Source: Corticibacter populi (GTDB lineage Bacteria > Pseudomonadota > Gammaproteobacteria > Burkholderiales > Burkholderiaceae_C). From it: a stretch of 64,000 bases of DNA. The stretch is from positions 1,116,001 through 1,180,000 of the forward strand of contig NZ_SGWR01000001.1 in the NCBI RefSeq assembly GCF_004217315.1. Direction: 5' to 3'. A program made the translations under genes and the position numbers. Under the pieces are notes generated by a model. The model was not told where the DNA came from. It worked only from the letters and a program-made list of their open reading frames with translations, and did not search any database. Positions 1,959 through 62,331 of this stretch are shown one piece after another; the first letter of the stretch is position 1, and each line of letters opens with the position of its first letter.

Positions 1959-1960
1959 GC

Positions 1961-2182: not shown

Positions 2183-2348
2183 CCAGACCAGGGCCTAGTG
2201 CGCCCCGGTCGCTGTCCCATCCGCTTTTCCTGGATAATCGCCATCCATCTCCCGGGCCTGTTGCCACCCTGCGCCAGGCCCAGCGCCGCCGCCCCACCCG
2301 GATCAAGCCCCGTACACCTGCCAGCCTCCACATGGCCACCTCACCGCC

Positions 2349-4925: not shown

Positions 4926-4948
4926 GCGCCTGTGAATGCGGGTAGAAT
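4922..4948 (+). promoter_or_regulatory. Candidate sigma-70 promoter for ileS
   Basis: TTGAGC at 4922-4927 and TAGAAT at 4943-4948 are separated by 15 bp, just at the end of the upstream gene. The spacing is short, so this is tentative. Transcription from here would give ileS a leader of about 300 nt. Confidence 0.4.
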
Positions 4949-4993
4949 GCCCCGCAATGTGCACCGCCTCCGCTCCCCACTGCTCAGAAGCTG

Positions 4994-5044
4994 CCCGCCT
5001 GCCGGCGGGATCGCTGGTGGCATCGGCGCTGGCATGCGCCGATG
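4994..5044 (+). other. Two hairpins in the ileS leader
   Basis: In the 335-bp gap before ileS, CCCGCC (4994-4999) pairs with GGCGGG (5004-5009), and CATCGGCGC (5021-5029) pairs perfectly with GCGCCGATG (5036-5044) across a 6-nt loop. No U-tract follows, so they are not intrinsic terminators. Nothing else recognisable is seen in 4949-5260; ribF, the usual upstream neighbour of ileS, is absent. Confidence 0.5.
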
Positions 5045-5260
5045 GCCAGACCTGCTTCACGCAGACCCGCCGCCAGACCACGCGCGATCGAATTTGACGC
5101 CCTCTGCGGCCTGCGGCCATCGCTTGGCACCGGCTGCCGCACAACCAGCGACCGGCGCATGGCCCCACCCATCACGCGGTGGCCGCCACCCCATGGAACA
5201 CCCCTGAATCACCTCGCCAGACGGACACCGCCTGCCCGGCTGGCCCAGCAAGGATCGAGC

Positions 5261-48027: not shown

Positions 48028-49163
48028 AGCACCCCGCCCTTGAGACCGACGGCCTCCGGAGGCTGGCGGTGCACGGCTTCGCCGGGCGGTGCCTCGTCGT
48101 CATCGGGCTGGATCGGAGCCACCTCGGAGAGCGTCTTGCGCGGGTCCAGCGCATCGCGCAGGGCGTCGCCCATCAGCGTCAGCAGCAGCAGCGTGACCAC
48201 CATCACGAGAAAGGTGAAGGTGCCGATCCACCAGGCGTCGAGGCTGTTCTTGCCCTGGCCCAGTAGCTCGCCCAGCGAGGGGGTGCCCGGCGGCACACCC
48301 AGGCCCAGGAAATCCAGCGCCACCAGCGAGGCGATCGCCGCGCTCATGCGAAACGGCAGGAAAGTCACCACCGGCGTCATGCTGTTGGGCAGGATGTGGC
48401 GGCGGATCAGCTGCCAGTTGCCCACGCCGAGCGCACGCGCGGCCCTGACGTAATCGAGCTGGCGGTTGCGCAGGAACTCGGCGCGCACGTAGTCCGACAG
48501 GCCCATCCAGCCGAAGATGCTCAGGATGACCAGTAGCAGCACGATGCTGGGCTGGAAGATGGCGCTGAGGATGATGAGCAGGAACAACTCGGGCATCGAG
48601 CTCCAGACTTCGATGAAGCGCTGGCCGACCAGATCGACCTTGCCGGCGAAGAAGCCCTGGATGGCGCCAGCCAGCACGCCCAGCGCCACGCCAATGGCGG
48701 TGAGCGCGATGGCAAACAGCACGCTGACGCGAAAGCCATAGAGCAACTGGGCCAGCAGGTCGCGCCCGCGATCGTCGGTGCCCAGCCAGTTGTCGGCCGA
48801 CGGCGGCGCCGGGTCGGGTGCGGTGCTGTGGTAATTGATGGTGCGCGAGCCATATTCATTGAGCGGAAACAGTGCCCAATTGCCGTCACTGGTGATGCGC
48901 GCGCGGATGAACGGATCGAGGTAGTCGGCCTCGGTGTCGAAATCACCGCCGAAGGTCTTCTCGGGATAGTGCTTGACGATCGGGAAGTAATACTGCCCCT
49001 CGTAGCGCAGCACCAGCGGCTTGTCGTTCGAAAGCAGCTCGGCCAGCAGGGCGAGCACCAGCATGGCGGCGAACAGCAGAAAGCTCCAGTACCCCAGGCG
49101 GTTGCGCTTGAAGCGCCGCCAGGCGCGCTGGCGTGGGCTGAGGATGGCGGTTTCCACGGGCAT
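48024..49163 (-). CDS. yejE: Oligopeptide ABC importer permease YejE
   Basis: 379 aa. The N-terminal helix follows QRAWRRFKRNRLGYWSFLLFA; a long periplasmic insert (KHYPEKTFGGDFDTEADYLDPF) specific to YejE precedes NWLGTDDRGRDLLAQLLYGFRVS. The EAA loop is YVRAARALGVGNWQLIRRHILPN. ATG 49163 has no strong ribosome site. A yejB partner, needed for a working pore, is not found upstream; 49164-49309 is short and no clear gene is seen. Confidence 0.92.
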   Translation of the reverse strand: MPVETAILSPRQRAWRRFKRNRLGYWSFLLFAAMLVLALLAELLSNDKPLVLRYEGQYYFPIVKHYPEKTFGGDFDTEADYLDPFIRARITSDGNWALFPLNEYGSRTINYHSTAPDPAPPSADNWLGTDDRGRDLLAQLLYGFRVSVLFAIALTAIGVALGVLAGAIQGFFAGKVDLVGQRFIEVWSSMPELFLLIILSAIFQPSIVLLLVILSIFGWMGLSDYVRAEFLRNRQLDYVRAARALGVGNWQLIRRHILPNSMTPVVTFLPFRMSAAIASLVALDFLGLGVPPGTPSLGELLGQGKNSLDAWWIGTFTFLVMVVTLLLLTLMGDALRDALDPRKTLSEVAPIQPDDDEAPPGEAVHRQPPEAVGLKGGVL

Positions 49164-49309
49164 GTGGGCGGTCTTTTCGATGAAAAAGGGTTCGCGAAGC
49201 GCTGTTTATACACCAGCGCAGCGCGCCCGCCGCCGTCCGCGGACAGCACCAGCGCCGGCCTGGCCGCCGCGCCATGCCCCTGTGCCCGCGCCGCCGCCCG
49301 GGAGCCGGC

Positions 49310-50995
49310 TCACGCCGGCTCTTTTTCCTGCAGCAGCCGCCACATCACCTTGCCGCTGCCGCTCTTGGGCAGGGCCTGGACGAATTCGACGATGCGCGGC
49401 GTCTTGTAGACGGCCATGTTCTCGCGGCACCAGGCGATGATCTGCTCGGCATCGGTGTCCTCATGGCCGGGGCGCAGCACCACCACCGCCTTGACGGTCT
49501 CGCCGCGGTAGTCGTCGCGCGCGGCGATCACGCAGGCCTCCTGGATGGCCGGGTGGCGGAACATCAGCGCCTCGACCTCGGCGGGCCAGATCTTGAAGCC
49601 CGAGGCATTGATCATGCGCTTGAGGCGATCGGTGATGAAGAAGTAACCTTCGTCGTCGGTGCGCCCCAGATCGCCGGTGCGAAAAAAGCGCTCGCCCTCG
49701 AAGTCGATGAAAGCCCGCGCAGTGGCTTCGGGGTGCTTCCAGTAGCCCTCGAACACCTGCGGGCCGCGGACGATGATCTCGCCCTGCTCGCCCGGCGACA
49801 GCTCCGCCAGCGTGTCGGGGTCGATGATGCGCGCATCGACACCGATCAGCGGAATGCCAAGGCACTGTTGCTTGGGCCGGTCGGTCGGGTTGCTGTGCGA
49901 GGGCGCGGCAGTCTCCGTGAGGCCATAGCCCTCGACGTAGCGCAGCCCATACTGCTCCAGCAGGCGTTGAGCCACCGCCTGCGGCATGGCGGCCCCGCCA
50001 CCGCCGATGTGCCGCAGACTGGTGAGGTCGTAACTGGCGAAGTTCGGACTGGCCAGCAGGTCGATGACCATGGTGGGGATGTTGGTCCAGCTCGTCACGC
50101 GCCACTTGGAGATCAGGCGCCCGGCCAGGTCGCGGTCCCAGCGCGGCATCAGGATCTGCGTGGCGCCCAGGTAGATGCCGCCGTGCATCACCACCACCAT
50201 GCCGGTGATGTGGAACATCGGCACCACCGAGAGCGTGACGGTCTGCATGCTGTGGTAGCCCCACAGGGTCGAGGCCACGGCGTTGTAGTTGATGCTGCGA
50301 TGCAGGTGCATGCAGCCCTTGGGCAGGCCGGTGGTGCCGCTGGTATAGGGCAGCACGGCCAGGTCCTCCTGGCCCACCACATGCTCGGGCGCAGCCGCCG
50401 TACAAGCCAGCGCGTCCCGGTAGCGGTGCAGTTGCGCTCCCGCGATGGCGGGCGGCGGGTAATCGCGGCACAGCCAGTCCTGCCAGGCCGGTGGCGGTGC
50501 ATCCTCACCCTGCACGGCCGGATCGAAGGCGTCGGTGAACTGGGAGATGATCAGATGTTCGAGGCGCTGCCCGGCCGGCAATGCGTCGGAAGCCTTGGCC
50601 AGTTGCGGTGCCAGGTCGCCGGTGCTCAGTGCCACCCTGGCGCCCGAATCCTCGATGTAGTGCTGCAACTCGTGCGCCAGATTCATCGGGTTGACCGGCA
50701 CCACCACCGCGTTGGCGCGCAGGATGGCGTAGTGCGCGGCCACCAGTTGCGGGCAGTTCTGCATGAAGACGATGACCCGGTCGCCGCGCCGCACGCCCAG
50801 TCCGTGCAGGTAGGCGGCCAGCCGCTCGACCTGCGCGGCCAGTTCGGCATACGAGGTCTCGGTACCGAAGAACACCAGCGCCGCCTTGTCCGGGAAACGC
50901 GCGGCACTGACGGCCAGGTTGTGCCACACCGAACTGGCCGGCGGCGTGATGGTGCGGGGGATGTGATTCGGCCAGAACGGGTCATACAAGGCCAT
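49310..50995 (-). CDS. Long-chain fatty acid CoA ligase-like AMP-binding enzyme
   Basis: 561-aa member of the acyl-adenylate family. The start ATG 50995 has GGAGG upstream. The core motifs are YTSGTTGLPKGCMH (P-loop), YGLTETAAPSHSN, FRTGDLGRTDDEGYFFITDRLKRMI and the catalytic Lys near the end in LPKSGSGKVMWR. It activates fatty or aryl carboxylic acids to CoA thioesters; the substrate class is long-chain fatty acid by similarity, not proven. It could supply acyl-CoA to the KAS III fusion enzyme at 40-42 kb (speculative). Confidence 0.92.
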   Translation of the reverse strand: MALYDPFWPNHIPRTITPPASSVWHNLAVSAARFPDKAALVFFGTETSYAELAAQVERLAAYLHGLGVRRGDRVIVFMQNCPQLVAAHYAILRANAVVVPVNPMNLAHELQHYIEDSGARVALSTGDLAPQLAKASDALPAGQRLEHLIISQFTDAFDPAVQGEDAPPPAWQDWLCRDYPPPAIAGAQLHRYRDALACTAAAPEHVVGQEDLAVLPYTSGTTGLPKGCMHLHRSINYNAVASTLWGYHSMQTVTLSVVPMFHITGMVVVMHGGIYLGATQILMPRWDRDLAGRLISKWRVTSWTNIPTMVIDLLASPNFASYDLTSLRHIGGGGAAMPQAVAQRLLEQYGLRYVEGYGLTETAAPSHSNPTDRPKQQCLGIPLIGVDARIIDPDTLAELSPGEQGEIIVRGPQVFEGYWKHPEATARAFIDFEGERFFRTGDLGRTDDEGYFFITDRLKRMINASGFKIWPAEVEALMFRHPAIQEACVIAARDDYRGETVKAVVVLRPGHEDTDAEQIIAWCRENMAVYKTPRIVEFVQALPKSGSGKVMWRLLQEKEPA

Positions 50996-51026
50996 GATGC
51001 GAACCTCCAGGATGGCGAATGGGTGA

Positions 51027-51081
51027 GAACCTGCCGGCGATCTTGCTGCTTCACAATCTTTTCGCGCTCGCGCGCAGGTTC
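51027..51081. repeat. Diverged copy D of the dispersed repeat
   Basis: Bounded by GAACCTG (51027-51033) and CAGGTTC (51075-51081), with TCACAATCTTTTCGCG inside, resembling TCATGATCTTTTCATG of copy C but with an insertion between the end and core. It lies just upstream of the acyl-CoA ligase start. Assignment is tentative. Confidence 0.35.
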
Positions 51082-51207
51082 CAGGAACAGTCGCCCGCAG
51101 GCTATCGGCGATCACCGGCACCATCAACCGTGGCAGCCCCAGGTCCGGGGCGTTTTCGGTCACCTGGGTTACAGCATGCGCGACAGCGGATCCATCCAGG
51201 CAGCCGA

Positions 51208-51792
51208 TCAATCCAGCCAGCGCACCGTCCCCTGCGTCGCGTCGACCAGCGCCTGCCGCAGGGCCGGCGCCACGGCCTCGACAACGCTGGCGTGCACCGT
51301 GACCTGCTCGTCGTGCGCCACCTCCCACTGCGTGACGCCATGCTGCTGCAACAGATGCCGCACGACGCCCTCCTGCGGATACCGCACCGCAAAAGCCAAA
51401 GCGCAGACCGCCTGCAGCTCGACTTTCTCGGCCACCAGCAGCGCCTGTGCGACGGCATCCGTGTAGGCCCGCACCAGACCGCCCGCACCCAGCTTGACGC
51501 CGCCGAAGTAGCGCACCACCGTGGCCAGCACCCCTTCCAGGTGCTGATGGCGCAGCACCTCCAGCATCGGCCGACCGGCCGTGCCACTGGGCTCGCCATC
51601 ATCGACTGCGGCCGATTCGCCACCGGCCATCAAGGCCCAGCACACATGGCGCGCCTCCGGGTGCTGGCGCCACAACTCCAGCACGACCTGCTGCGCCTGG
51701 GCGCGCCCCTCCACCGGCTGCACACAGGCGATGAAGCGGCTTTTCTTGATGACGAGTTCGCTGTGGGCGGGGCTTTTGAGGGTCTGGCGCAT
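51208..51792 (-). CDS. yigZ: YigZ/IMPACT-family protein
   Basis: 194 aa. UPF0029/IMPACT N-terminal domain: SRFIACVQPVEGRAQAQQV, ARHVCWALMAGG, DDGEPSGTAGRPMLEVL and VVRYFGGVKLGAGGLVRAYTDAV, the family signature, followed by an EF-G-like C-terminal domain. The function is unclear; the eukaryotic homologue regulates GCN2, and bacterial forms are linked to RNA or translation. ATG 51792 is used (another ATG is 15 bp upstream). It is divergent from cobT with only 42 bp between. Confidence 0.92.
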   Translation of the reverse strand: MRQTLKSPAHSELVIKKSRFIACVQPVEGRAQAQQVVLELWRQHPEARHVCWALMAGGESAAVDDGEPSGTAGRPMLEVLRHQHLEGVLATVVRYFGGVKLGAGGLVRAYTDAVAQALLVAEKVELQAVCALAFAVRYPQEGVVRHLLQQHGVTQWEVAHDEQVTVHASVVEAVAPALRQALVDATQGTVRWLD

Positions 51793-51834
51793 GATTGCGC
51801 TTAGCATACTGCACTCCCCGTGCAGCACCGAACC

Positions 51835-52914
51835 ATGACTTCCTCCCCCGACACCCCCATCGCGGACGGCATTCCCCCTATCGCCTCGCTCGATGCCCCC
51901 GCCCTCTCCGAACGTCTCACCTCGCTGCTGGACCACAAGACCAAGCCGCTGCGCGCGCTCGGCCGCCTGGAAGATCTGGCGCACCAGCTCGGCCGCATCC
52001 TCGGCAGCACGGCGCCGGCATTGACGGCGCCGCAGGCGCTGGTCTTCGCCGCCGACCATGGCCTGGCCCGCCAGGGTGTCTCGGCCTATCCGGCCGACGT
52101 GACTTGGCAGATGGTGCGCAACATGCTCGCCGGCGGCGCCGCCATCAGCGTGCTGACCCGCCAGCACGGCATCGCGCTCAAACTCATCGACTGCGGCGTG
52201 GCGCAGGCCCTGCCGCCCCACCCTGACCTGATGAATTGCAAGGTCGCCACCGGCACCGCCGATGCCTCCGAACAGCCGGCCATGACAGCGGAGCAATGTG
52301 CGCAGGCCATCGCCGCCGGACGCCGCGCCGTCCAGGCCGTGCCGGGCAACGCCGTCCTGCTGGGCGAGATGGGCATCGGCAACACCTCCGCCGCGGCGCT
52401 GCTGCTGGCACGGCTGATCGACCAGCCCGTCGAGGCCTGCGCCGGTGCCGGCACTGGCGTGCAGGGCGAGGCGTTCGCGCGCAAACTGCAGGTGCTGCGC
52501 AAGGTGCTGGCACGCCATGCCGGTGCCCACGCACCGCTGGACGTCCTGGCCGCGATGGGAGGGCTGGAGATCGCCGGCATGGTCGGCGCCATACTGCAAG
52601 CCGCGCTGGAGCGGCGCGTCATCGTCGTCGATGGCTTCGTCACCAGCGCGGCCGTACTGGTGGCGGCGCGCCTGCAGCCGAACGTGCTGCAGCGCTGCGT
52701 GTTCTCGCACCTCTCGCATGAGCAGGGCCACCGCCTGATGCTCGATGCCATGGGCGTGCGGGCCCTGCTGCAGATGGACATGCGCCTGGGCGAAGGCTCG
52801 GGCGCGGCGCTGGCCTGGCCGCTACTGGAATCGGCCTGCCGCATCCTGCGCGAGATGGCCAGCTTCGAGTCGGCCCAGGTTTCCGGCCAGACTTCGAACC
52901 AGAGCATCCCATGA
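51835..52914 (+). CDS. cobT: Nicotinate-nucleotide:dimethylbenzimidazole phosphoribosyltransferase
   Basis: 359 aa. It makes alpha-ribazole phosphate from NaMN and DMB for the lower ligand of cobalamin. Motifs: FAADHGLARQGVSAYPADVTWQMV, LGEMGIGNTSAAALL, CAGAGTGVQ and the catalytic Glu region LGEGSGAALA. ATG 51835 is chosen over GTG 51820. It overlaps cobS by ATGA. No cobalamin riboswitch fits in the 42-bp upstream gap. Confidence 0.95.
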   Translation: MTSSPDTPIADGIPPIASLDAPALSERLTSLLDHKTKPLRALGRLEDLAHQLGRILGSTAPALTAPQALVFAADHGLARQGVSAYPADVTWQMVRNMLAGGAAISVLTRQHGIALKLIDCGVAQALPPHPDLMNCKVATGTADASEQPAMTAEQCAQAIAAGRRAVQAVPGNAVLLGEMGIGNTSAAALLLARLIDQPVEACAGAGTGVQGEAFARKLQVLRKVLARHAGAHAPLDVLAAMGGLEIAGMVGAILQAALERRVIVVDGFVTSAAVLVAARLQPNVLQRCVFSHLSHEQGHRLMLDAMGVRALLQMDMRLGEGSGAALAWPLLESACRILREMASFESAQVSGQTSNQSIP

Positions 52915-53786
52915 ATCCATGCCAGGGCCTGCGGCATTTTCTGCTCGCACTGCAGTACTTCACGCGCATTCCCGTCACCGGTGGGCTCGCGCGCTGGATG
53001 GGTTACCAACCCGAGTGGCTGCCGCGCGCACTCGGCCATCTGCCCGGCGTAGGCGCGCTGGTGGGCCTGCTCTCGGGTGGCGTGCTGGCCGCCATGCTGT
53101 GGCTGCTGCCCAGCGTGCAGATGGTGCCCGCCACGGCCTGGGTCGCCGCGCTGTTGGCCACCAGCGCCGGCCTGCTGCTGACCGGCGCGTTCCATGAAGA
53201 CGGCCTGGCCGACCTGGCCGATGGCCTGGGCGGCAGCCATGAGAGGGAGCGCGCACTGGAGATCATGAAGGATTCGCGCATCGGCGCCTTCGGTGCCATC
53301 GCCCTCGCCATGGCACTGCTGGGCAAAGTGGCGCTGCTGGCCGCCGTGGTGCAGGCCGCCAGCGTTGCATTGCCTGCCATGGCCGGCTGGCAGCCAGCAG
53401 CGCTGCTGGGCGGTGCGGCTCTGCTGGGCGCCCATGCATGCTCACGCATGATGCCCATCCTCATCACCGCGTGGCTGCCGCACATCGGCGACAGGCCGTC
53501 ATCCAAATCCAAGCCGATTGCCTCCCATGTCGCCGCGAGCACCGTGCTGGTGGCGCTGGTCTGGGTGGCGCTGATCCTGCTGCTGCTGTCCATCGCTCTG
53601 CCACACCTCGACTGGTGGCTGCCGCTGCTGGGCGCGCTGGCCGGCGGTGGCCTGGTCGGCTGGCGGCTCAAGGTCCGATTGCAGGGCTTCACCGGCGACG
53701 GACTGGGCGCGGCCCAGCAACTGGGCGAACTGGGCTTTTACCTGGTGCTGCTGGCCGGCCTGGGCCGCACCGGCGCGCCGGCCTGA
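52911..53786 (+). CDS. cobS: Adenosylcobinamide-GDP ribazoletransferase (cobalamin synthase)
   Basis: 291-aa inner-membrane enzyme joining adenosylcobinamide-GDP with alpha-ribazole (phosphate). FLLALQYFTRIPVTG is the usual start; TGAFHEDGLADLADGLGG and ERALEIMKDSRIGAFGA are the metal/active-site signature. Several hydrophobic helices follow, and QGFTGDGLGAAQQLGELGFYL is the conserved end. Translationally coupled to cobT; cobC follows 14 bp later. Confidence 0.96.
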   Translation: MNPCQGLRHFLLALQYFTRIPVTGGLARWMGYQPEWLPRALGHLPGVGALVGLLSGGVLAAMLWLLPSVQMVPATAWVAALLATSAGLLLTGAFHEDGLADLADGLGGSHERERALEIMKDSRIGAFGAIALAMALLGKVALLAAVVQAASVALPAMAGWQPAALLGGAALLGAHACSRMMPILITAWLPHIGDRPSSKSKPIASHVAASTVLVALVWVALILLLLSIALPHLDWWLPLLGALAGGGLVGWRLKVRLQGFTGDGLGAAQQLGELGFYLVLLAGLGRTGAPA

Positions 53787-53800
53787 ACAGGGAACCGGCC

Positions 53801-54397
53801 ATGCCCCTGTGGATCATGCGCCACCCCCGCGTCGTGCAGGCCGAGCCGACCTGCTACGGCGCCAGCGAAGTGCCGCTGGATACTGCACATCTGCAGACCT
53901 GTGCAGAAGCCCTGGCCGCTGCTCTGCCGCAAGGCAGCCGCATCACCACTTCGCAGCGGCAGCGCACCCAGGCACTGGCCACCGCACTGGCGGCGCTCAG
54001 GCCTGACCTGGCGGACTGGCAGACCGATGCGCGCCTCAATGAGATGGATTTCGGCTGCTGGGAACTCGTGCCCTGGCGCCAGATCCCGAAACCCGCCATC
54101 GACGCCTGGACGGCGGACTTTGCCAGCCATCGCTTCGGTGGCAGGGAGTCGGTGACCGACATCATCGGCCGCGCAGCCGCCATGCTCGACGATCACCGGC
54201 GCATCGCCGACACCGACGATGCGCCCCGGCTCTGGATCACTCATGCGGGCGTCCTCAACGCGCTGGCCCTGCTGCAGGAGCGGCCCGATGGCCGCATCCG
54301 CTCCGCCGCAGACTGGCCGCCCACCCGAGTCGGCTTTGGCCAATGGCTGATCTATCCCGATCGGGGAACGCACGAGCCTCGCAAGAGCAAGACATAG
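53801..54397 (+). CDS. cobC: Histidine phosphatase, CobC-like (alpha-ribazole phosphatase)
   Basis: 198-aa member of the histidine phosphatase superfamily. The catalytic loop reads LWIMRHPRVVQ with RHP in place of the usual RHG. The acid is in LNEMDFGCWE, and the second His in WITHAGVLNA. It follows cobS directly, so removal of the phosphate from alpha-ribazole phosphate (or adenosylcobalamin 5'-phosphate) is the likely job. The ATG at 53801 gives the family start; the frame is open further upstream inside cobS. Confidence 0.88.
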   Translation: MPLWIMRHPRVVQAEPTCYGASEVPLDTAHLQTCAEALAAALPQGSRITTSQRQRTQALATALAALRPDLADWQTDARLNEMDFGCWELVPWRQIPKPAIDAWTADFASHRFGGRESVTDIIGRAAAMLDDHRRIADTDDAPRLWITHAGVLNALALLQERPDGRIRSAADWPPTRVGFGQWLIYPDRGTHEPRKSKT

Positions 54398-54492
54398 GTG
54401 CTCTTTCCCAGCCCAGCGACCATCCCGGACAAAGAAAAAGCACCGCCATCGTGGCGCCCGGACCGGACGCACCATGGGAGTGCTTTCGAATA

Positions 54493-54568
54493 TGGCTCCC
54501 CGACCTGGGCTCGAACCAGGGACCTGCGGATTAACAGTCCGTCGCTCTACCGACTGAGCTATCGGGGA
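54493..54568 (-). tRNA. tRNA-Asn(GUU), left copy
   Basis: 76 nt with CCA encoded. Minus strand starts TCCCCGATAGCTCAG, has the D-loop GTCGGTAGAGC, anticodon GTT within GACTGTTAATC, the T-arm CTGGTTCGAGCCCAG, and ends TCGGGGAGCCA. All four stems pair. It differs from the right copy at 57545-57620 only by a compensatory acceptor-stem pair (C-G versus T-A) and marks the left end of the integrated element. Confidence 0.97.
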
Positions 54569-54697
54569 AAGAAGCCCGCGATCATAGCAGAGTTTTTTGC
54601 GTGACTGGCAAATGGCTCTTATGAACGCGGAATTTCCGTCTCTCCGTACCTGCTGACGTGGCCCGACTTTCTGACAACAGCTACGCAGGAGCTACGC

Positions 54698-54826
54698 ATG
54701 GATTCATTGAAGACAAACGGGGTGGGGGCCGCTGGCGGGAGGGGCAGCGCCCCTCCGGGGGCTGGAGCGAAGCGCAAGAAGGGGGTGCCCCCCCTGCTGA
54801 CCGCTCGCGGGAGGGCTGACGCATGA
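54698..54826 (+). CDS. 42-aa basic small protein of the integrated element
   Basis: ATG 54698 follows AGGAG by 6 bp. The product begins MDSLKTNGVGAAGG and is rich in Gly, Ala, Arg and Lys (AGAKRKKGVPPLL). No family is recognised. Its TGA overlaps the ATG of the next small ORF, which argues it is translated. The coding DNA includes a perfect hairpin GGAGGGGC/GCCCCTCC (54738-54756), so it may also have an RNA or origin role. Confidence 0.45.
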   Translation: MDSLKTNGVGAAGGRGSAPPGAGAKRKKGVPPLLTARGRADA

Positions 54827-55026
54827 AGAAGACGCCACCGCAAAAGATGAGCAGGTCGGTCGAGGATATCTACGTGATGCGTATCGCCGATCTGCTTTCC
54901 GATGACCCGATCCTGTTGGACGTGATCGGCCACCGCTTCAAGCTGGTGGCGGAATGCGACCGGGAGCGCCGCCGCGTCACGTACCAGTTTCGGGCCGTTG
55001 ACGACGATGGGCCGGGGACGCTGTAG
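54823..55026 (+). CDS. 67-aa small protein of the integrated element
   Basis: The product MKKTPPQKMSRSVEDIYVMR... with IADLLSDDPILLDVIGHRF and a beta-like tail VTYQFRAVDDDGPG has the look of a compact alpha/beta protein. It overlaps the previous ORF by ATGA. No family is recognised. Being encoded between att and rep, a regulatory or accessory replication role is plausible but unproven. The opposite strand is also open here (see rejected items). Confidence 0.55.
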   Translation: MKKTPPQKMSRSVEDIYVMRIADLLSDDPILLDVIGHRFKLVAECDRERRRVTYQFRAVDDDGPGTL

Positions 55027-55225
55027 GCACCGCCTGCTTAGCGAATCCGTGATAGCATTTGCGTTGCAACTAACGGACTGGCCCGTCGGAACTTGTAGGG
55101 GCTGCAGAGGCATACCAAAATCCGCGCCAAGCTCGCGTACCGAATAGAAAAGGTTGAGCTTAGGTAGCAAGCGATCACAAGTCCTCACAAACGCAAATAA
55201 TGCTGTTGCGAATTCCCTTTCATCC

Positions 55226-55264
55226 GGGGTTCGCTGCTGCATGTCTATGTTGTCAGCGAACCCC
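55226..55264 (+). other. Perfect 11-bp inverted repeat upstream of rep (candidate origin)
   Basis: GGGGTTCGCTG (55226-55236) pairs exactly with CAGCGAACCCC (55254-55264) across a 17-nt loop. It lies in the 322-bp non-coding stretch 55027-55348 ahead of the replication gene, where rolling-circle elements often keep the double-strand origin. No U-tract follows, so a terminator is less likely. Confidence 0.5.
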
Positions 55265-55348
55265 AATCACAGCATTGGAGTTCGCGTGTTTTTCCCCAAC
55301 GATAGATCAGACGTTCCGCATGGAAATGCGGAAGACATAAGCGGACGC

Positions 55349-56485
55349 ATGCCCGCCGCGCAGAGGGGCCCCGCTCGCGGGGACACTTGCGCGGCGGGCG
55401 GGCGCCCGCTGAAATCCACCACAGCGCCAGCCCCCCGTGTAGTAACCACGGGAGGAAAGCAACAGAAGGCCCCGAAGTACGCAGGGATCGACCAGGACAC
55501 CGGAGAACCTGTCGAACTCTACGTTACGGGTTCGCGGCTGGTCGTGACACGCCATCTGCAGCCTGACGCATCCTCGCATCCGGGTGCGGCCCTGGTCGAT
55601 GCCCTGGCCTTCAGCATCGTGCCGCCCGACGAGCTGTCCTATCCCTGGGTGCTGGAGAACCTGCGCCGCTTCATGGTTCTGGAGGGCTTCGAACAACGCC
55701 GCGGCATGTTCGGCTTCCGCTGTTCCGCCCGGCTGGGCGATGGTGCGGGCGTCATCGCCTGGGGCGGCGAAAGTCAGCGCGGGCGCGTCTACGTCAGCCT
55801 CATGGGCAAGGGTTGCGGCATGGTGTTTGACTGGCAGGGGCTTGCGTCCTGGCTGGAGGAACACCGCGCCAAGCTCAAGCGCGTGGACCTGGCCCATGAT
55901 GACTTCCAGGGCCAGCAGGTCAGCATCGATTGGGCCGTCGAGCAGTATCGGGCCGATGGCTTCAATGCAGGCGGGCGTCGGCCTGCACACGAAACCGTAG
56001 GCGATTGGCTGGCCGGCAATGAAGCGCGCAAGGGTCGAACCCTCTACATCGGCAACCGCACCAGCGGCAAGCTCTGCCGCATCTACGAAAAGGGCAAGCA
56101 ATTGGGCGACCCGGAAAGCGGCTGGGTGCGCGTGGAAGTCGAATGGCGCGACCAGGACAGGTTCATTCCATACGACGCCCTCACCCACCCTGGCCACTAT
56201 CTCGCCGGAGCGTATCCGTGCCTGGCCTTCCTGAGCGAGGAACAGTCGCGCATCAAGACCATCGCCAAGGGCGCATGCATCGCCTTCGACCGCGCCATCG
56301 AGAACGCCAAGCAGCACTGCGGCAAGCTGGTGAATCTCGCGCTGGAAGTGTTCGGCGGCGATTACGCCGAAGTGGTGGACCGGCTGCGCAGACCCGGCTA
56401 TCCGAGCCGCATCGATCCGTTCAGCTACCACGTGCAGCATGACCCGGCCATGCTCGATCCAGCATTGCGGGAGGCCTGCGCATGA
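55349..56485 (+). CDS. Replication initiation factor (Rep_trans/phage-Rep type)
   Basis: About 378 aa if ATG 55349 is used; the frame is open from 55154 and the true start is uncertain because the first 40 residues are low-complexity. The core resembles the replication initiation factor family of rolling-circle plasmids and filamentous phages: VDALAFSIVPPDE, LKRVDLAHDDFQGQQVSIDWAVEQY, RTLYIGNRTSGKLCRIYEKGKQLG and VRVEVEWRDQDRFIPYDAL, with a Tyr-containing stretch toward the nickase site. It overlaps the integrase gene by ATGA, so the two form one unit. Confidence 0.8.
   Translation: MPAAQRGPARGDTCAAGGRPLKSTTAPAPRVVTTGGKQQKAPKYAGIDQDTGEPVELYVTGSRLVVTRHLQPDASSHPGAALVDALAFSIVPPDELSYPWVLENLRRFMVLEGFEQRRGMFGFRCSARLGDGAGVIAWGGESQRGRVYVSLMGKGCGMVFDWQGLASWLEEHRAKLKRVDLAHDDFQGQQVSIDWAVEQYRADGFNAGGRRPAHETVGDWLAGNEARKGRTLYIGNRTSGKLCRIYEKGKQLGDPESGWVRVEVEWRDQDRFIPYDALTHPGHYLAGAYPCLAFLSEEQSRIKTIAKGACIAFDRAIENAKQHCGKLVNLALEVFGGDYAEVVDRLRRPGYPSRIDPFSYHVQHDPAMLDPALREACA
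55352..55398 (+). other. Cruciform-prone double inverted repeat at the rep 5' end
   Basis: CCCGCCGCGCA (55352-55362) pairs perfectly with TGCGCGGCGGG (55388-55398), enclosing a second hairpin CCCCG/CGGGG (55369-55382). It overlaps the putative first codons of rep and could occlude its ribosome site or act as a secondary origin. Confidence 0.5.
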
Positions 56486-57501
56486 GCCTCTACAAACGCA
56501 AGGATTCCCCGAATTGGTGGGTCAAACTGCCACCGATCCCCGGCGAGGGTGGAAAGCCGCTGCAGATCAGCACCGGCACGGCCAGCAAGCGGGATGCGCA
56601 GGCATTCCACGACCGGCTCAAGGTCGAGCGCTGGGAGCAGGCCAGGCTGGGTGTCAAGCCGCGCCGCAAGTGGGAAGATGCCGTCGCCAAGTTCCTGGAG
56701 GAAACCAGCCACAAGCGCACGCACAAACAGGACCAGGCCATGCTGGCATGGCTGACCCCTGAACTAGGGGGGAAATGGCTTGACGAGATCGACCGGGCGC
56801 AAATCGACCGCATCAAGGCCAAGCGTGCCAGGATCGCCAGCAAGGCACGCGCCAATCGTTATCTGGCGCTGCTGCGTTCCATCCTGCGCAAGGCGTGTCA
56901 TGAATGGGAATGGATCGACCACATCCCCAAGATGACGCTGTTCCGGGAAAACAATGGCCGCATCCGGGCGCTGACGCGGGAAGAGTTCTGGCGACTGCAC
57001 CGGGAATTGCCACCGCATCTGGCGGATATGGCGCTGTTCGCGGTTTCAACGGGCCTGCGTGCCGCGAATGTGCGCTTGCTGCAATGGGCATGGGTAGACA
57101 TGCCCCGCCGCCACATGCGGATTCCTGCCGACCAGTTCAAGAACGGGGAAGCGCACGGGGTGCCGCTCAATCAGACCGCCATGGACATTCTGAACAGGCG
57201 GGACGGCCTGAACGCGAAATACGTTTTCACCTTCAACGCGAAGCCGGTGGAACAGATTTCGACGCGGGCATGGCGTGCGGCACTAGCTCGCGCCGGAATC
57301 GAGGATTTCCACTGGCATGACCTGCGCCACACCTGGGCGACCTGGCAGCGCCAGGCTGGCACGCCGACGCATGAGCTGCAACGCTTGGGCGGCTGGAAAT
57401 CTCTGGTGATGGTGGAGCGCTACGCGCACGTTGCGCCGGAGGGCTTGCGCGTTGCGGCCGATCGGCTGGATAATGTGCTCGGCTACACGGCAGCTACGTA
57501 G
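56482..57501 (+). CDS. Tyrosine recombinase / integrase
   Basis: 339 aa. An N-terminal Arm/SAM-like DNA-binding region (KRKDSPNWWVKLPPIPGEGG) and a core-binding domain precede the catalytic domain. Active residues seen are Arg193 (STGLRAANV), Lys220 (QFKNGEAHG), His279-x-x-Arg282 (HDLRHTWA), Trp305 (LGGWKS) and the nucleophile Tyr314 (VERYAHV). It lies 43 bp from the right tRNA-Asn, the usual position of int next to attR or attL. It presumably recombines the element at the tRNA-Asn block. Confidence 0.94.
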   Translation: MSLYKRKDSPNWWVKLPPIPGEGGKPLQISTGTASKRDAQAFHDRLKVERWEQARLGVKPRRKWEDAVAKFLEETSHKRTHKQDQAMLAWLTPELGGKWLDEIDRAQIDRIKAKRARIASKARANRYLALLRSILRKACHEWEWIDHIPKMTLFRENNGRIRALTREEFWRLHRELPPHLADMALFAVSTGLRAANVRLLQWAWVDMPRRHMRIPADQFKNGEAHGVPLNQTAMDILNRRDGLNAKYVFTFNAKPVEQISTRAWRAALARAGIEDFHWHDLRHTWATWQRQAGTPTHELQRLGGWKSLVMVERYAHVAPEGLRVAADRLDNVLGYTAAT

Positions 57502-57544
57502 AAACGGCAAGGGGCAGACCGGATGGCCTGCCCCTTGGAAATAG

Positions 57545-57620
57545 TGGCTCCTCGACCTGGGCTCGAACCAGGGACCTGCGGATTAACAGTCCGTCGCTCT
57601 ACCGACTGAGCTATCGAGGA
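57545..57620 (-). tRNA. tRNA-Asn(GUU), right copy
   Basis: 76 nt with CCA. Minus strand starts TCCTCGATAGCTCAG and ends TCGAGGAGCCA; anticodon GTT. It is identical to the left copy except for one compensatory acceptor pair (T-A here, C-G there). It is likely functional and forms the right boundary of the element. Confidence 0.97.
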
Positions 57621-57684
57621 ACAAGCCCAAGATTATATACAGGAAAACGCCCGCACTCCGGCAAACGGCGCGGATTTTTCGATC

Positions 57685-58320
57685 TCAGTCGAGCAGACCG
57701 TTTTTCAGGGCGTAGTAGGTCAGGTCACTGTTGGAGTGCAAGGCCATCTTGGTCATCAGGCGCGTGCGGTAGGTGCTGACGGTCTTGACGCTCAGCGACA
57801 GTTCGTCGGCGATCTCCCCAGCCGTCTTGCCTTTGGCCAGCTTGAGAAAAACCTGGAACTCGCGCTCGGAGAGCTGCTCGTGGGGCAGGCCCTCGTCCTC
57901 GCCACGGCCCAGGTGCTGGGCCAGCAAGTCGGCCACGTTGGGGCTGATGTAGCGTTTGCCCAGCGAGATGACGCGGATGGCCTCGACGATCTCGGACGGA
58001 TCGCACTCCTTGTTCAGGTAGCCGCTGGCGCCCTGGCGGATCAGGTTGACGGCATAGTGCTCCTCCGGGTAGCCGCTGAGGATCAGAATGCCCATGTCGG
58101 GCGCTTTGGCGCGCAGCATCGCCAGCACATCCAGACCGCTCTGGCCGGGCATGGACAGGTCCATGATCAGCACATTGATCTCCTGCTGGCGCACCAGATC
58201 GATGGCCTCGCGCCCGGACGCGGCTTCGCCGACCACGCGCAGATCCACATGTTCGGAGAGGTATTGCCGCAGTCCCGAACGGACGATGGCGTGATCATCA
58301 ACAATCCCTACAGCGATCAT
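57685..58320 (-). CDS. NarL/LuxR-type response regulator
   Basis: 211 aa. The receiver domain has Asp8/Asp9 (IVDDHAIVRSGL), the phosphorylated Asp54 (LIMDLSMPGQSG), a conserved Ser (LILSGYPEEHY) and Lys (GASGYLNKECDP). The C-terminal LuxR helix-turn-helix is LSEREFQVFLKLAKGKTAGEIADELSLSVKTVSTYR. ATG 58320 has AAGGAG upstream; the open frame upstream is not conserved. It is divergent from a histidine kinase across 125 bp, so the two form a two-component system (GacA/UvrY-like in layout). The target genes are unknown. Confidence 0.95.
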   Translation of the reverse strand: MIAVGIVDDHAIVRSGLRQYLSEHVDLRVVGEAASGREAIDLVRQQEINVLIMDLSMPGQSGLDVLAMLRAKAPDMGILILSGYPEEHYAVNLIRQGASGYLNKECDPSEIVEAIRVISLGKRYISPNVADLLAQHLGRGEDEGLPHEQLSEREFQVFLKLAKGKTAGEIADELSLSVKTVSTYRTRLMTKMALHSNSDLTYYALKNGLLD

Positions 58321-58445
58321 GGTGGCTCCTTTTTCGAATACGGCAATGCCAAAGCGCGGCAAGCTTATCATGGCGCCGGACGATCTGACCCGCATTTCCT
58401 GCCCGGCCACCGCGCCGCCCTCCGACCCACAAGACAAACCCTTAC

Positions 58446-59891
58446 ATGCCCCTACCGAAAATGGCCCAAGAACGGGAAAAGCTGCTCGACCCGGCCTTTC
58501 TGCTGGTGCTGGCGCTGATGCTGGCCGCAGCCTTCCTGAGCATCAACGAGATCGCCTACCAGGGGGCGCGCCATGCGGCGCAGCAGACCTTTGCCTACCA
58601 GGACAGGCGCGCCGACATCAATCGCCTGGTGCAGGCATTGTTCAATGCCCAGACCCATCTGCGCGGCTACATGCTCTCGAGCCAGCCTGAACATCTCGAT
58701 CTCTATCAGCAAAGCCGCCAGCACCTGCGCGATGAGCTCGGCGCAGTGTCCACGCGCCTGTCCGCCAGTGACGCCGACCGCGCCACCTTTGGAAAACTGC
58801 AGGAAGAAGTCATCTACCAAATGTCGGAGATGGACCTGAGCCTGCGCCTCTTCCAGCAGGACAAACCCGAGGCGCTGCAATTCCTGCTGAGCGCCGATCG
58901 CGCATCGGAGCCGCTGCAGTCGATCCAGGCCATCAGCGACAACATCGTCCAGGAGCAGGGACAGGAGATGCGCCTGGGCCGGCAGACGCTGCTGCGCTCG
59001 CTGCTGATTTCGCGCATCGGCGTTGCCTTCCTCAGCGCTGCGGCCCTGCTGGCCTTCTGGCTGTATCTGCGGCAGGTCAAGGCGCGCAAGCGCATCGACG
59101 CGCAGATCCAGCAGCGCCTGATGGACGAACGCGACGCCCTGGAGAAACAGGTGCGCCAGCGCACCGCCTCGCTCTCCGAGCTGGCCAGCTACCTGCAGCA
59201 GGTGCGCGAAAACGAACGTGCCCACCTGGCCCGCGAGCTGCATGACGAACTGGGTGCGCTGCTGACTGCCGCCAAGCTCGACATCGCCCGCCTGCGTCCG
59301 CGCATCGACATGGGCAATGCCGAGATCAAGGAGCGCATCGCGCACCTGAGCGACACCCTAAACCAGGTCATCTCGCTCAAGCGCCGCATCATCGAGGATC
59401 TGCATCCCTCGACGCTGAGCACGCTGGGCCTCAATGCCGCACTGGAAATCCTGACACAGCGCTTTACCAACACCACCGGCGTCGGCGTCGAGAGCAACCA
59501 TGAGGTCGTCTCCATCCACAACGCAGACCTGCGCCTGACGATCTACCGCGTCATCCAGGAATCACTCAACAACATCGCCAAATACGCCAAGGCCTCTTCG
59601 GTGCAGACCTTCCTGCACCAGTACCCCAGCCACCTGTTCGTGCGCATTCGCGACGACGGCATCGGCTTCGATCCGGACAAGGTCGGCATCCACTCGCACG
59701 GCCTGCGCGGCATGCGCCACCGCATCGAGGCGATGGGCGGCCAACTGCGCATCGACACCGCGCCCGGCAAGGGCTGCACCATCACAGCGACGCTCCCGAT
59801 GGTGGCCGACCTGCCCGGCGCCAGTAGCCACCCGCTGCCGCCGCCACCCGTCGCACCCATACCCCCATCTGCACCTGAAGCCGCATCCTGA
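58446..59891 (+). CDS. Sensor histidine kinase with CHASE3-like domain (NarX/DegS class)
   Basis: 481 aa. Two membrane helices (about 15-32 and 190-208) flank a periplasmic helical CHASE3-like domain (QTFAYQDRRADINRLVQAL, AQTHLRGYMLSS). The dimerisation domain is HisKA_3 with the phosphorylated His266 in ARELHDELGALLTAAK. The ATPase has the N-box IQESLNNIAKYAKA and the G-box DDGIGFDPD and SHGLRGMRHRIEAMGG. The tail is Pro-rich (PLPPPPVAPIPPS). It is divergent from its likely partner regulator. The signal is unknown. Confidence 0.93.
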   Translation: MPLPKMAQEREKLLDPAFLLVLALMLAAAFLSINEIAYQGARHAAQQTFAYQDRRADINRLVQALFNAQTHLRGYMLSSQPEHLDLYQQSRQHLRDELGAVSTRLSASDADRATFGKLQEEVIYQMSEMDLSLRLFQQDKPEALQFLLSADRASEPLQSIQAISDNIVQEQGQEMRLGRQTLLRSLLISRIGVAFLSAAALLAFWLYLRQVKARKRIDAQIQQRLMDERDALEKQVRQRTASLSELASYLQQVRENERAHLARELHDELGALLTAAKLDIARLRPRIDMGNAEIKERIAHLSDTLNQVISLKRRIIEDLHPSTLSTLGLNAALEILTQRFTNTTGVGVESNHEVVSIHNADLRLTIYRVIQESLNNIAKYAKASSVQTFLHQYPSHLFVRIRDDGIGFDPDKVGIHSHGLRGMRHRIEAMGGQLRIDTAPGKGCTITATLPMVADLPGASSHPLPPPPVAPIPPSAPEAAS

Positions 59892-59998
59892 GTCTCAAAT
59901 GGCAATGATCCGGTGACAGGAATGCGATGTTCGACCAATGTCAACGGTCTTACGGATTGGAACCGTATCCTCTCTTACATTCGGTCAAAATGCGTGCC

Positions 59999-61477
59999 AT
60001 GCAAAAACACCTTCGATTCCATATCATCGGCGCCATTGCGGCCGGCCTGCTGGCTGCATGTGGCGGTGGAGAAAGCGATGGCGGCAATGACCTCCCCCCC
60101 GCACTCAGCATTCAAAAAGTCGATGGCCGCTATCACACCGGCAAGCAGGCGGCCATCACCACATTCAAAAGCCATGAGGCGCCTGCCAATCTGCAGGTCG
60201 GCCGCATCGACCTGCCGGCGCTCGCGGCCGAGAAATCCACCGCACTGCCAGAGCCGTTCGGCGCGCGCAGGATCGGCGAGGCACGCGAGATCGCCAGCAC
60301 CGCCAGTCCGGCCCTGCTGGCCGATCAGTTGCACTGGAGCGTTGCCGCCGATGGCAGCCAGCACGCCGCGATTCGCGTCCAGGCCGAGGCCGCCTTCGGC
60401 CTGCGGCTGGGTCTGCTGATCGAGCAATTACCCGATGCCGCGCTGCTGCGCCTCTACCACGACCAGAACGAGGATGAGGCCTATGAAGTCAGCGGCTCCA
60501 GCATCAATGCCCTGCTGGCCCTGAACGCCGAAGCGGGCGACACCAGTGCCGCAGGCAGGACCTGGTGGTCGCCCAATCTCGGCGGCGACCATGTGGTGCT
60601 CGAGTTGGAGCTGCCCGCCGGAGTGATGCCACAGGCCCTGCAAATCGCACTTCCAACCCTCTCGCACATCTTCACGGATCTCAGCCAGTACAGTGAAGAA
60701 GAGGCATCCGGCAGCATCGAGAAAGCCATTGGCGATGCGGAAAGCTGCAACCAGGATGTCAGCTGCTACAGAACCGGCCAGGAGCAGCGCGATGCCGTTG
60801 CCCGCATGCAATTCGTCGCCTCGGACGGCAAGAGCTACCTCTGCACCGGCACCTTGCTCAACGACGCGATTGCCTCGGACATTCCCTACTTCCTGACCGC
60901 CAACCACTGCATCGGCACGCAGGCCGAGGCCAGCTCGCTGCAAACCGACTGGTTCCTGCGCACGGCCAGTTGCTCGAGTGCCGCGATCGACAGTCGCCAC
61001 ACGGTCCGCGGCGGCGGCGCCCGCCTGCTGGTGAGCACCACCGGAACGCAAGGCTACGACGCCACCCTGCTGGTTCTCAATGACGCCGCGCCCGCCGGCA
61101 CCTACCTGGCCGGCTGGGATGCCAATCAGAACAATACCGTGCAGGCCATCTACGGCATTCACCATCCTGCGGGTGATCTGGCAAAGATCAGCGGTGGCCA
61201 GCTCGTCTCCTACGCCAGCTGCAATGGCAGCGGCAGTTGCTCGACAGAGGGAAGCGACAGCGACAACTACTACGCCGTAAGCTGGGCCAGCGGCACCACC
61301 GAAGGCGGCAGCAGCGGCTCGGCACTGTTCTCGTCGAGCGGGCACGTGCTGGGCACCCTTTACGGCGGCGCCGCCAGCTGCAGTGCGCAACAGGCGCCAG
61401 ACTTCTATGGCCGCTTCGACAAGGCGTTTGCAGCAGGCATGAACCGCTACCTGGCGGCCTCGGAACGGCCGCTGTGA
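59999..61477 (+). CDS. Lipoprotein trypsin-like serine protease
   Basis: 492 aa. The signal peptide IIGAIAAGLLAAC has a lipobox with Cys21, then a Gly/Ser/Asp linker. The pro-region spans about 30-250. The protease domain carries a lysyl-endopeptidase-like triad: His303 (LTANHCIG), Asp354 (GYDATLLVL), Ser439 (EGGSSGSALF). Many Cys in the domain suggest disulfides, so it works in the periplasm or on the surface. ATG 59999 is chosen; ATG 59990 or 59927 are alternatives. The substrate is unknown. Confidence 0.82.
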   Translation: MQKHLRFHIIGAIAAGLLAACGGGESDGGNDLPPALSIQKVDGRYHTGKQAAITTFKSHEAPANLQVGRIDLPALAAEKSTALPEPFGARRIGEAREIASTASPALLADQLHWSVAADGSQHAAIRVQAEAAFGLRLGLLIEQLPDAALLRLYHDQNEDEAYEVSGSSINALLALNAEAGDTSAAGRTWWSPNLGGDHVVLELELPAGVMPQALQIALPTLSHIFTDLSQYSEEEASGSIEKAIGDAESCNQDVSCYRTGQEQRDAVARMQFVASDGKSYLCTGTLLNDAIASDIPYFLTANHCIGTQAEASSLQTDWFLRTASCSSAAIDSRHTVRGGGARLLVSTTGTQGYDATLLVLNDAAPAGTYLAGWDANQNNTVQAIYGIHHPAGDLAKISGGQLVSYASCNGSGSCSTEGSDSDNYYAVSWASGTTEGGSSGSALFSSSGHVLGTLYGGAASCSAQQAPDFYGRFDKAFAAGMNRYLAASERPL

Positions 61478-61514
61478 CGGCAGGCAGGCTCCCGGCCCCC
61501 GACCGGGAGAAACA

Positions 61515-61539
61515 CATGGCGAGCCTGGTTCTCGCCATG
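61515..61539 (+). other. Hairpin after the protease gene
   Basis: CATGGCGAG (61515-61523) pairs exactly with CTCGCCATG (61531-61539) 38 bp past the stop. No T-run follows, so it is a weak or factor-dependent terminator candidate. Confidence 0.4.
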
Positions 61540-61671
61540 CACCGATGATCCCACGGCCCCGGCGCCAGATCGGGCACCATCTGCAGATGGTTTTGCACTG
61601 CGCTGCGCAGACCGGCAAGCTCAAGGAACCTCAAGGGCGGCCGGGAAACCAGACCGCCTTCGCCTTTCACC

Positions 61672-62331
61672 CTATCCGCCGCGATCATACTCGTCGTGCC
61701 GCTGTCGTCTTGACAGGCCCCACAAGGCCAGCATGCCGGGCGCCAGTACCAACGTCCAGATCAGCGTGGAGAGGTGCTGCTGCACCCAGGCCTGATGGCC
61801 CAGCAAGTAGCCCAGGCTGGAAATGCCCACGACCCACAGCAATGCGCCGATCACATTGAATGCGACGAAGGTGGGTCGATGCATGCGCGCCACGCCAGCG
61901 ACAAACGGCACGAAGGTGCGCAGAAATGGCATGAAACGCGCCAGCACCACGGTGATCGGGCCGTGACGTTCATAGTAGCCTTGGGCAAGATCGAACGCGC
62001 GGCGGTTGAAGAAGCGCGAGCCCTCGCGCCGGAACACCCGCAGGCCAACAAAGCGGCCAATCTGGAAATTGCACTGGTCACCCAGGATGGCTCCGGCAAG
62101 CAAGGCCCCCATGCCCAGCGGCAGACTGAGCAGACCTGCGCCCGCCAGCATGCCGACCACGAACAGCAGCGAATCGCCCGGCAGCAAAGGCATGACCACC
62201 AGGCCCGTCTCGACGAAGAGAACGGCGAACAGCAACAGATAGATCCAGGCGCCATACTGCTGTACGGCGACCTCCAGATAACGATCCACATGCAGGATGA
62301 AATCCAGCGGCAAGGTAAGCCATTCCATCAT
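61672..62331 (-). CDS. DedA-family membrane protein
   Basis: 219 aa. DedA/SNARE-associated fold: LLFAVLFVETGLVVMPLLPGDSLLFVVG, GALLAGAILGDQCNFQIGRFVG, HGPITVVLARFMPFLRTFVPFVAGVARM, and helical re-entrant segments. DedA proteins are undecaprenyl-phosphate or lipid flippases/transporters. ATG 62331 overlaps the stop of the upstream membrane gene (ATGA), so the two are coupled. Confidence 0.92.
   Translation of the reverse strand: MMEWLTLPLDFILHVDRYLEVAVQQYGAWIYLLLFAVLFVETGLVVMPLLPGDSLLFVVGMLAGAGLLSLPLGMGALLAGAILGDQCNFQIGRFVGLRVFRREGSRFFNRRAFDLAQGYYERHGPITVVLARFMPFLRTFVPFVAGVARMHRPTFVAFNVIGALLWVVGISSLGYLLGHQAWVQQHLSTLIWTLVLAPGMLALWGLSRRQRHDEYDRGG

What the first reader, a model, noticed from the sequence alone, without database searches (positions are those of the whole stretch)
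54493..57620. Compact tRNA-Asn-integrated replicon of about 3.05 kb
Two same-orientation tRNA-Asn genes bound a segment with only two small ORFs, a Rep-type initiator and a tyrosine integrase. That a self-replicating and self-integrating unit could be this small, with no capsid, relaxase or cargo, is unusual. It could be an integrated rolling-circle plasmid or a phage satellite borrowing a helper.
Basis: partly seen in the sequence, partly recalled or inferred. Interest (0 to 1): 0.75.

Follow-up and report, generated by a model that had tools for sequence, protein, structure and literature searches.

The report
Tiny capsid-less integrating replicon family
A stretch of about 2.9 kilobases beside a tRNA gene looks like a stranded copy of a small mobile element that can copy and insert itself but has no coat genes, and it belongs to a wide family whose larger members often carry genes resembling defences against viruses.

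Summary
The tRNAs are not the attachment repeats: tandem tRNA-Asn genes without the element occur in five of nine genus mates. The element is about 2.93 kb, sits in the right-hand tRNA, and its left site seems cut down to 6 bp. A Rep scan kept 80 genome loci (of 171 relatives): 52 have rep directly followed by a tyrosine integrase, 16 have the inovirus gene Zot, none both. Thirty-three relatives with a tRNA repeat of at least 24 bp span 2.9-8.7 kb; several carry restriction, NACHT, GmrSD, HEPN or dCTP-deaminase genes. Rep is of inovirus type, and the origin-like hairpin also occurs in 19 viral contigs, all with Zot. Capsid-less members are not one clade. Best reading: capsid-less integrating rolling-circle replicons; this copy is cargo-free and probably stranded. 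Transfer between cells is open: inovirus, conjugative or other phage helper.

The parts
54493..54568 (-). tRNA-Asn A, older left-hand gene of a tandem pair
   Evidence: flanks compared with genus mates
54613..54618 (.). TGGCTC, presumed remnant of attL (inferred)
   Evidence: only other copies in 54481-57700 are the two tRNA 3' ends; spacing
54679..54696 (.). two AGCTACG repeats 11 bp apart, presumed left arm-type integrase sites
54755..54795 (.). G+C-rich block shared with G190 upstream of orf67
   Evidence: alignment; not found in viral contigs; folding not unusual, z 0.11
54823..55026 (+). orf67, 67 aa, unknown function
   Evidence: no family; no fold match
55196..55285 (+). conserved block before rep with inverted repeat GGGGTTCGCT/AGCGAACCCC
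   Evidence: 9 sequences; folding z -4.0
55286..56485 (+). rep, Rep_trans initiator (likely GTG start; longest frame from 55154)
55434..55452 (+). origin-like hairpin CCCGTG-TAGTAAC-CACGGG inside rep
   Evidence: folding z -2.5
56482..57501 (+). int, tyrosine integrase; TGLR, HDLRH and MVERY stretches fit the catalytic boxes (recalled)
57481..57498 (.). GGCTACA and AGCTACG 11 bp apart, presumed right arm-type sites
57508..57537 (.). 13-bp inverted repeat, terminator-like, between int and tRNA B
   Evidence: pair I6
57545..57620 (-). tRNA-Asn B, presumed integration target and attR

Best explanation
The segment is one cargo-free, probably immobilised member of a family of capsid-less integrative rolling-circle replicons of Beta- and Gammaproteobacteria. 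Shown by sequence: gene content and order, tRNA insertion with repeats from the tRNA 3' end to the anticodon in relatives, a conserved hairpin at the start of rep, codon-level constraint on the three genes, absence of Zot. Inferred: Int recombines attL and attR at the anticodon loop and releases a circle; Rep nicks the TAGTAAC hairpin and copies the circle by rolling circle; the circle re-integrates in a tRNA gene. In this copy the left site seems to have lost about 39 bp, so excision should be poor. Transfer between cells needs a helper, by an undetermined route.
For: Same orf67-rep-int order in G190 at tRNA-Thr, 2,944 bp, 47-bp repeat. 52 of 80 genome loci have rep then int; 42 of the 52 have a tRNA within 1.2 kb after int, 34 within 100 bp; 32 of the 42 have a repeat of 24 bp or more; with G190, 33 elements of 2,895-8,682 bp. 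0 of 52 rep-int loci have Zot in the locus and 0 of 16 Zot loci have the pair. TAGTAA-loop hairpin at rep in 26 of 52 rep-int loci, 0 of 52 on the opposite strand. Codon position 3 differs in 0.46-0.62 of codons against 0.13-0.29 at positions 1 and 2, window against relatives. Tandem tRNA-Asn genes without the element in genus mates.
Against: No free circle, excision product or transfer seen; none of 9 short contigs has terminal overlap. The left boundary rests on 6 bp plus spacing, and left arm distances vary in other relatives: of 14, 5 show an 11-bp pair, 5 show no motif. The strict TAGTAA hairpin is missing in 26 of 52 rep-int loci, though a GTAATA-loop form is in 18 of 52 (sets overlap). 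12 of 80 loci have neither int nor Zot by my profiles, and 18 of the 64 Zot-less loci end less than 4.5 kb after rep, so absence of Zot there is weak.
Confidence: 0.72

Rival explanations
1. Satellite of inoviruses: the excised circle is copied by Rep and its single strand is packaged and exported by a filamentous helper phage.
For: Rep is of inovirus type; the hairpin is in 19 viral contigs, all with Zot; capsid-bearing and capsid-less Reps are intermixed on the tree; an inovirus (L091) has an integrase 48% identical; two of nine genus mates carry Zot-bearing inoviruses with a related Rep, 39% and 31%.
Against: No Zot in G000 or G190. In the window's clade 1 of 17 host genomes has Zot (3 of 20 if L129, L130 and L133 are added), against 33 of 250 in the order. 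Two conserved non-coding blocks were not found in viral contigs. No packaging signal is known. The viral collection is chosen for viral markers, so 19 of 19 with Zot is partly selection.
Confidence: 0.3
2. Integrative mobilisable element: the Rep_trans protein works as a MobT-like relaxase, the hairpin as nic site, and a conjugative helper moves the strand.
For: Rep_trans proteins act as relaxases in streptococcal IMEs, and some IMEs with MobT sit in tRNA genes (PMC7563843, PMC5704250, passages). Two cargo ORFs match NikA-like weakly.
Against: Those cases are in Firmicutes; here Rep matches PHROG 453 strongly and the hairpin is shared with viruses. No coupling protein in the element. Conjugation genes elsewhere in G000 were not searched.
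Confidence: 0.22
3. Decayed inovirus prophage that lost its structural genes by deletion in this strain.
For: Inovirus-type Rep; attL appears truncated.
Against: The same compact plan recurs in tens of loci with intact repeats around rep and int, and all three genes are under constraint.
Confidence: 0.06

Closest known systems
Inoviruses with Rep_trans initiators, e.g. Xanthomonas phage Cf2 and IMG/VR contig L091
   Same: Rep family, small genome; in L091 also the hairpin at rep and a related integrase
   Different: No coat, ssDNA-binding, adsorption or Zot gene here; rep directly followed by int, seen in 0 of the 91 Zot-positive loci
[quoted passage not shown] text not held)
   Same: Replication of inovirus kind without the full structural set (recalled)
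   Different: Own tyrosine integrase and tRNA sites; no helper shown; no antirepressor recognised
Streptococcal IMEs with Rep_trans/MobT proteins, e.g. IME_Sag2603_tRNAlys (PMC5704250, passages)
   Same: Rep_trans-family protein with an integrase at a tRNA gene
   Different: Firmicutes; there the protein is a proposed or shown relaxase
tmRNA islands I23, I44, I55 in Pseudomonas (PMC12595487, abstract and passages)
   Same: Tyrosine integrase, AlpA, an inovirus Gp2-like protein, defence cargo, no transfer genes
   Different: From under 20 to over 70 kb, at tmRNA; I55 is moved by a jumbo phage

Membership tests
Inovirus | Zot/pI assembly ATPase | tested here: not met
   none in G000 nor in window 47001-62000 by my profile
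Inovirus | coat and adsorption genes | tested here: not met
   three genes fill 54619-57544; no such match
Inovirus | inovirus-type initiator and origin | tested here: met
   PHROG 453; hairpin shared with 19 Zot-bearing viral contigs; nicking itself untested
Inovirus satellite | packaged by a helper inovirus | not testable with these tools
   needs experiment; no resident helper gene in G000
Inovirus satellite | packaging signal shared with a helper | tested here: inconclusive
   two exact patterns from conserved blocks gave 0 viral contigs
IME with Rep_trans relaxase | tyrosine integrase plus Rep_trans protein | tested here: met
IME with Rep_trans relaxase | mobilisation by a conjugative helper | not testable with these tools
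   needs mating assays
tRNA-site integrative element | repeat of the tRNA 3' part at both ends | tested here: inconclusive
   met in 33 relatives; in the window only TGGCTC remains at the left, and no degenerate 45-bp copy (355 of 500 shuffles as good)
Tailed-phage satellites (PICI, P4-like) | packaging or capsid-remodelling genes | tested here: not met
   none among the three genes

The most novel reading that the evidence does not exclude
A widespread class of capsid-less inovirus satellites that act as micro defence islands: rep and int form a chassis of about 2.9 kb at tRNA genes, genes against tailed phages ride mostly upstream of rep, and filamentous phages carry the chassis between cells.
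Probability: 0.27. Interest if true: 0.82.

Novelty: new variant of a known kind. Interest (0 to 1): 0.64.

Why it matters
If right, many tiny integrated elements have been overlooked, because a large inovirus survey started from pI/Zot proteins (PMC6813254, passages). The 2.9-kb plan is near the least DNA that can both copy and integrate itself, and carriage of defence-like genes would add a small vehicle for immunity against phages. The mixing of capsid-bearing and capsid-less lineages makes the origin of satellites testable. I found no description in print by the searches, which cover only openly licensed PMC papers.

Tried and rejected
Whole tRNAs as att sites (3,052-bp circle): rejected on tandem tRNA genes without the element, flank homology and paired acceptor-stem differences. 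Crossover at the tRNA 3' end in this copy: kept as an alternative; the right-hand spacing equals that of L128, and the left-hand spacing fits a deletion if G190, L118 and L119 are the guide.

Single-sequence Rep scans of genome contigs and viral contigs found no relative; alignment scans did. orf67 had no family or fold match (model mean pLDDT 74). Two conserved blocks were not found in viral contigs by exact pattern. None of 9 loci under 8 kb has overlapping ends. A resident inovirus helper as a rule: Zot is in 13 of 50 host genomes against 33 of 250 (order) and 14 of 274 (class), not matched by taxon, and 1 of 17 in the window's clade. Single origin of capsid-less forms: rejected.

Rows dropped: the tree leaves out L131, L142 and L150 and ORFs under 200 aa, and uses a chosen part of the viral loci (110 rows). 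Element sizes leave out 10 of the 42 tRNA-linked genome loci, which lack a repeat of 24 bp, and the window's own tRNA-tRNA row. The host Zot search took 50 of the 80 loci. Cargo scans used 87 ORFs of 70 aa or more from 32 loci; 10 of the 87 were read singly. L131, L155 and L190 appear to be the same contigs as in G278, G595 and G122 (equal contig lengths), so the sets overlap.
Full report
Observation. ARAGORN finds tRNA-Asn(GTT) at 54493-54568 and 57545-57620, both minus strand. Between them lie orf67 (54823-55026), rep (longest frame 55154-56485, likely start 55286) and int (56482-57501), all plus strand. Rep carries PF02486 and matches PHROG 453; int carries PF00589 and matches PHROG 1; orf67 matches nothing in Pfam, PHROGs or NCBIfam. 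The closest solved structure by sequence is 4cij, a Rep (E 7e-19, profile of five Reps). The window lies at G000:C1:1116001-1180000 of a 4.2-Mb genome in 9 contigs. Zot was not found in G000.

The tRNAs are older than the element. All 10 genomes of the genus match the tRNA. Read with ARAGORN in the fetched pieces: G086 and G263 have two same-strand genes 70 and 69 bp apart, G765 two 56 bp apart, G766 three 43 bp apart, G188 three 85 bp apart, G384 two in opposite orientation, G768 one, G326 and G767 single genes at two places each. In G086, G263 and G768 the DNA beside the tRNA matches the window's left flank up to about 54160; in G384 the other side matches the right flank from 57684. tRNA A with its 24-nt 5' flank is 98% identical over 101 columns to a G384 tRNA-Asn. 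A and B differ at two positions that pair in the acceptor stem, so each came as a unit. In the genus no other genome has this Rep: G766 (39%) and G765 (31%) have a related Rep beside Zot, i.e. inoviruses, and G384 has a marginal match.

Boundaries. In relatives the repeat runs from the tRNA 3' end to the anticodon loop, about 45 bp. In the window the only left-hand trace is TGGCTC at 54613-54618; no 45-bp copy is found even with mismatches (355 of 500 shuffles score as well). Two AGCTACG repeats 11 bp apart lie 61 and 72 bp to its right. In G190, L118 and L119 such a pair lies 63-64 and 74-75 bp from the end of the full repeat; on the right the window pair lies 64 and 53 bp before the tRNA, as in L128. 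Against this, among the 14 relatives checked the left pair is present in 5 (in L127 and L128 at about 100-120 bp), single or irregular motifs in 4, none in 5; a right-hand pair is present in 5, a single motif in 4, none in 5. My reading is insertion in tRNA B at the anticodon and later loss of about 39 bp of attL. It is inference, and predicts poor excision of this copy.

A sister copy. G190, another genus of the family, has orf67, rep and int in the same order (70, 58 and 62-66% identity) at tRNA-Thr(CGT), with a 47-bp repeat and a 2,944-bp unit. Its integrase gene is interrupted. Against relatives (G190, L118, L119, L120), the window's genes differ at codon position 3 in 0.46-0.62 of codons and at positions 1 and 2 in 0.13-0.29. 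In G278 the rep and an integrase (62%) lie at the ends of two contigs, the integrase beside tRNA-Phe; no left repeat of 12 bp was found there.

The family. Of 399 genomes of the family, 32 (own included) have a Rep match at E 0.001 or better, and 2 have orf67. Of 34 genomes with Rep matches, 26 have Zot; G000, G190, G278, G595, G328, G138, G131 and G384 do not. An alignment of five Reps found 171 relatives in the named genome collection, of which 80 were kept. By profiles built here, 52 of the 80 have int directly after rep on the same strand, 16 have Zot, 0 both, 12 neither; the first 58 listed (L117-L174) have no Zot in the locus. Of 80 viral contigs found in the same way, 75 have Zot and 0 have the rep-int pair; that collection is chosen for viral markers, so it is biased. 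Of the 52, 42 have a tRNA within 1.2 kb after int and 34 within 100 bp. Thirty-three elements with a repeat of 24 bp or more (32 genome loci and G190) measure 2,895-8,682 bp, median 4,022, in tRNA genes for Thr 9, Asn 6, Met 4, Pro 4, Arg 4, Phe 2, Lys 2, Val 1 and Ser 1. Hosts named include Acidovorax radicis N35, Polaromonas, Rhodoferax, Nitrosomonas, Propionivibrio, Noviherbaspirillum autotrophicum and Solimonas terrae. The Azonexus hydrophilus plasmid NZ_CP151407 has rep, an HTH gene and int in a row.

Origin. The hairpin CCCGTGTAGTAACCACGGG at 55434-55452 recurs in close form in G190, G278, G595 and Azonexus and in all 9 sequences of a clade alignment. An exact scan of viral contigs gave 19, all 19 with Zot and with a Rep match. 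A hairpin with stem of 6 bp or more and TAGTAA loop lies near the start of rep in 26 of 52 rep-int loci (opposite strand 0), with GTAATA loop in 18 of 52 (opposite strand 0; sets overlap), with TTAATA loop in 0 of 52 (opposite strand 5). In Zot-positive genome loci TAGTAA is in 1 of 16 and TTAATA in 3 of 16; in Zot-positive viral loci TAGTAA is in 8 of 75 (opposite strand 3) and TTAATA in 11 of 75 (opposite strand 0). So the loop varies by lineage and this form is commoner in the capsid-less loci than in the nearest inoviruses. The window hairpin folds with z -2.5. That Rep nicks it is inferred.

Evolution. A quick tree of 110 Reps needs 8 changes of the Zot label (at least 6 forced by starred branches; shuffled mean 35; 0 of 500 as low). 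Holding the 53 Zot-less rep-int rows together is rejected, p-AU 2e-53; long branches are present, and the direction of change is not shown. L091 is an inovirus with coat protein, Zot, the hairpin and an integrase 48% identical to the window's over 259 aa.

Cargo. Eighty-seven ORFs of 70 aa or more from 32 elements were scanned. Ten were read singly: L127 dCTP deaminase (PADLOC dCTPase, E 5e-161), L128 GmrSD_N, L160 GmrSD_N (NsnA, PD-T4-2_A), L143 NACHT with SNaCT13, L140 HEPN_Swt1 (PDC-M34B), L165 AAA ATPase near AriA and PtuA, L134 BglII endonuclease, L183 C5 cytosine methylase, L176 pentapeptide repeats, L169 nothing. The tally also shows ParD, ParE, Vsr and MT-A70. These are names by similarity; no defence was tested, and the shortest elements have only small ORFs.

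Helper. Zot is in 13 of 50 host genomes examined, 33 of 250 genomes of the order and 14 of 274 of the class. For G000, G190 and the hosts of L117-L128, L131, L132 and L150 it is 1 of 17; adding L129, L130 and L133, which fall in the same clade of the tree, it is 3 of 20. This neither shows nor excludes an inovirus helper. Other documented routes for comparable elements are conjugative helpers for Rep_trans IMEs (PMC5704250 and PMC7563843, passages) and a jumbo phage for tmRNA islands with an inovirus Gp2-like protein (PMC12595487, abstract and passages).

Verdict. A real element of a kind that I could not find described in the searches available, best filed as a new variant among integrative replicons that borrow their transfer. 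Replication and integration are well supported by anatomy; transfer is open.

Noticed in passing
L091 (IMGVR_UViG_3300025292_000035) 5725-6624 and 6659-7777: An inovirus with an integrase related to the window's, followed by a DUF4062 gene.
   Followed up: partly
L072 (G595:C1:440000-454000), 1044 to 7410 in reverse orientation: An element of about 6.4 kb at tRNA-Phe with a related integrase and an HTH gene; one ORF matches the Tle1-like phospholipase domain, and no Rep match was seen in it.
   Followed up: partly
L107 (G188) 1179-1576 and L109 (G766) 1520-1833: Three tandem tRNA-Asn genes with repeated spacers: the array seems to change copy number in this genus.
   Followed up: no
genome of L157 (G828): Fourteen Zot stretches on many short contigs of one uncultured bin; rich in inoviruses or a mixed bin.
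   Followed up: no
window 55327-55423: Imperfect inverted repeat with 36-nt arms (75% complementary) just before the hairpin; it also gives a reverse-strand self-match in the Rep search.
   Followed up: no
L129, L130, L133: Three related Reps with hairpin CCCGTTTAGTAAAACGGG but neither Zot nor a recognised integrase in the locus; possibly a third arrangement.
   Followed up: no
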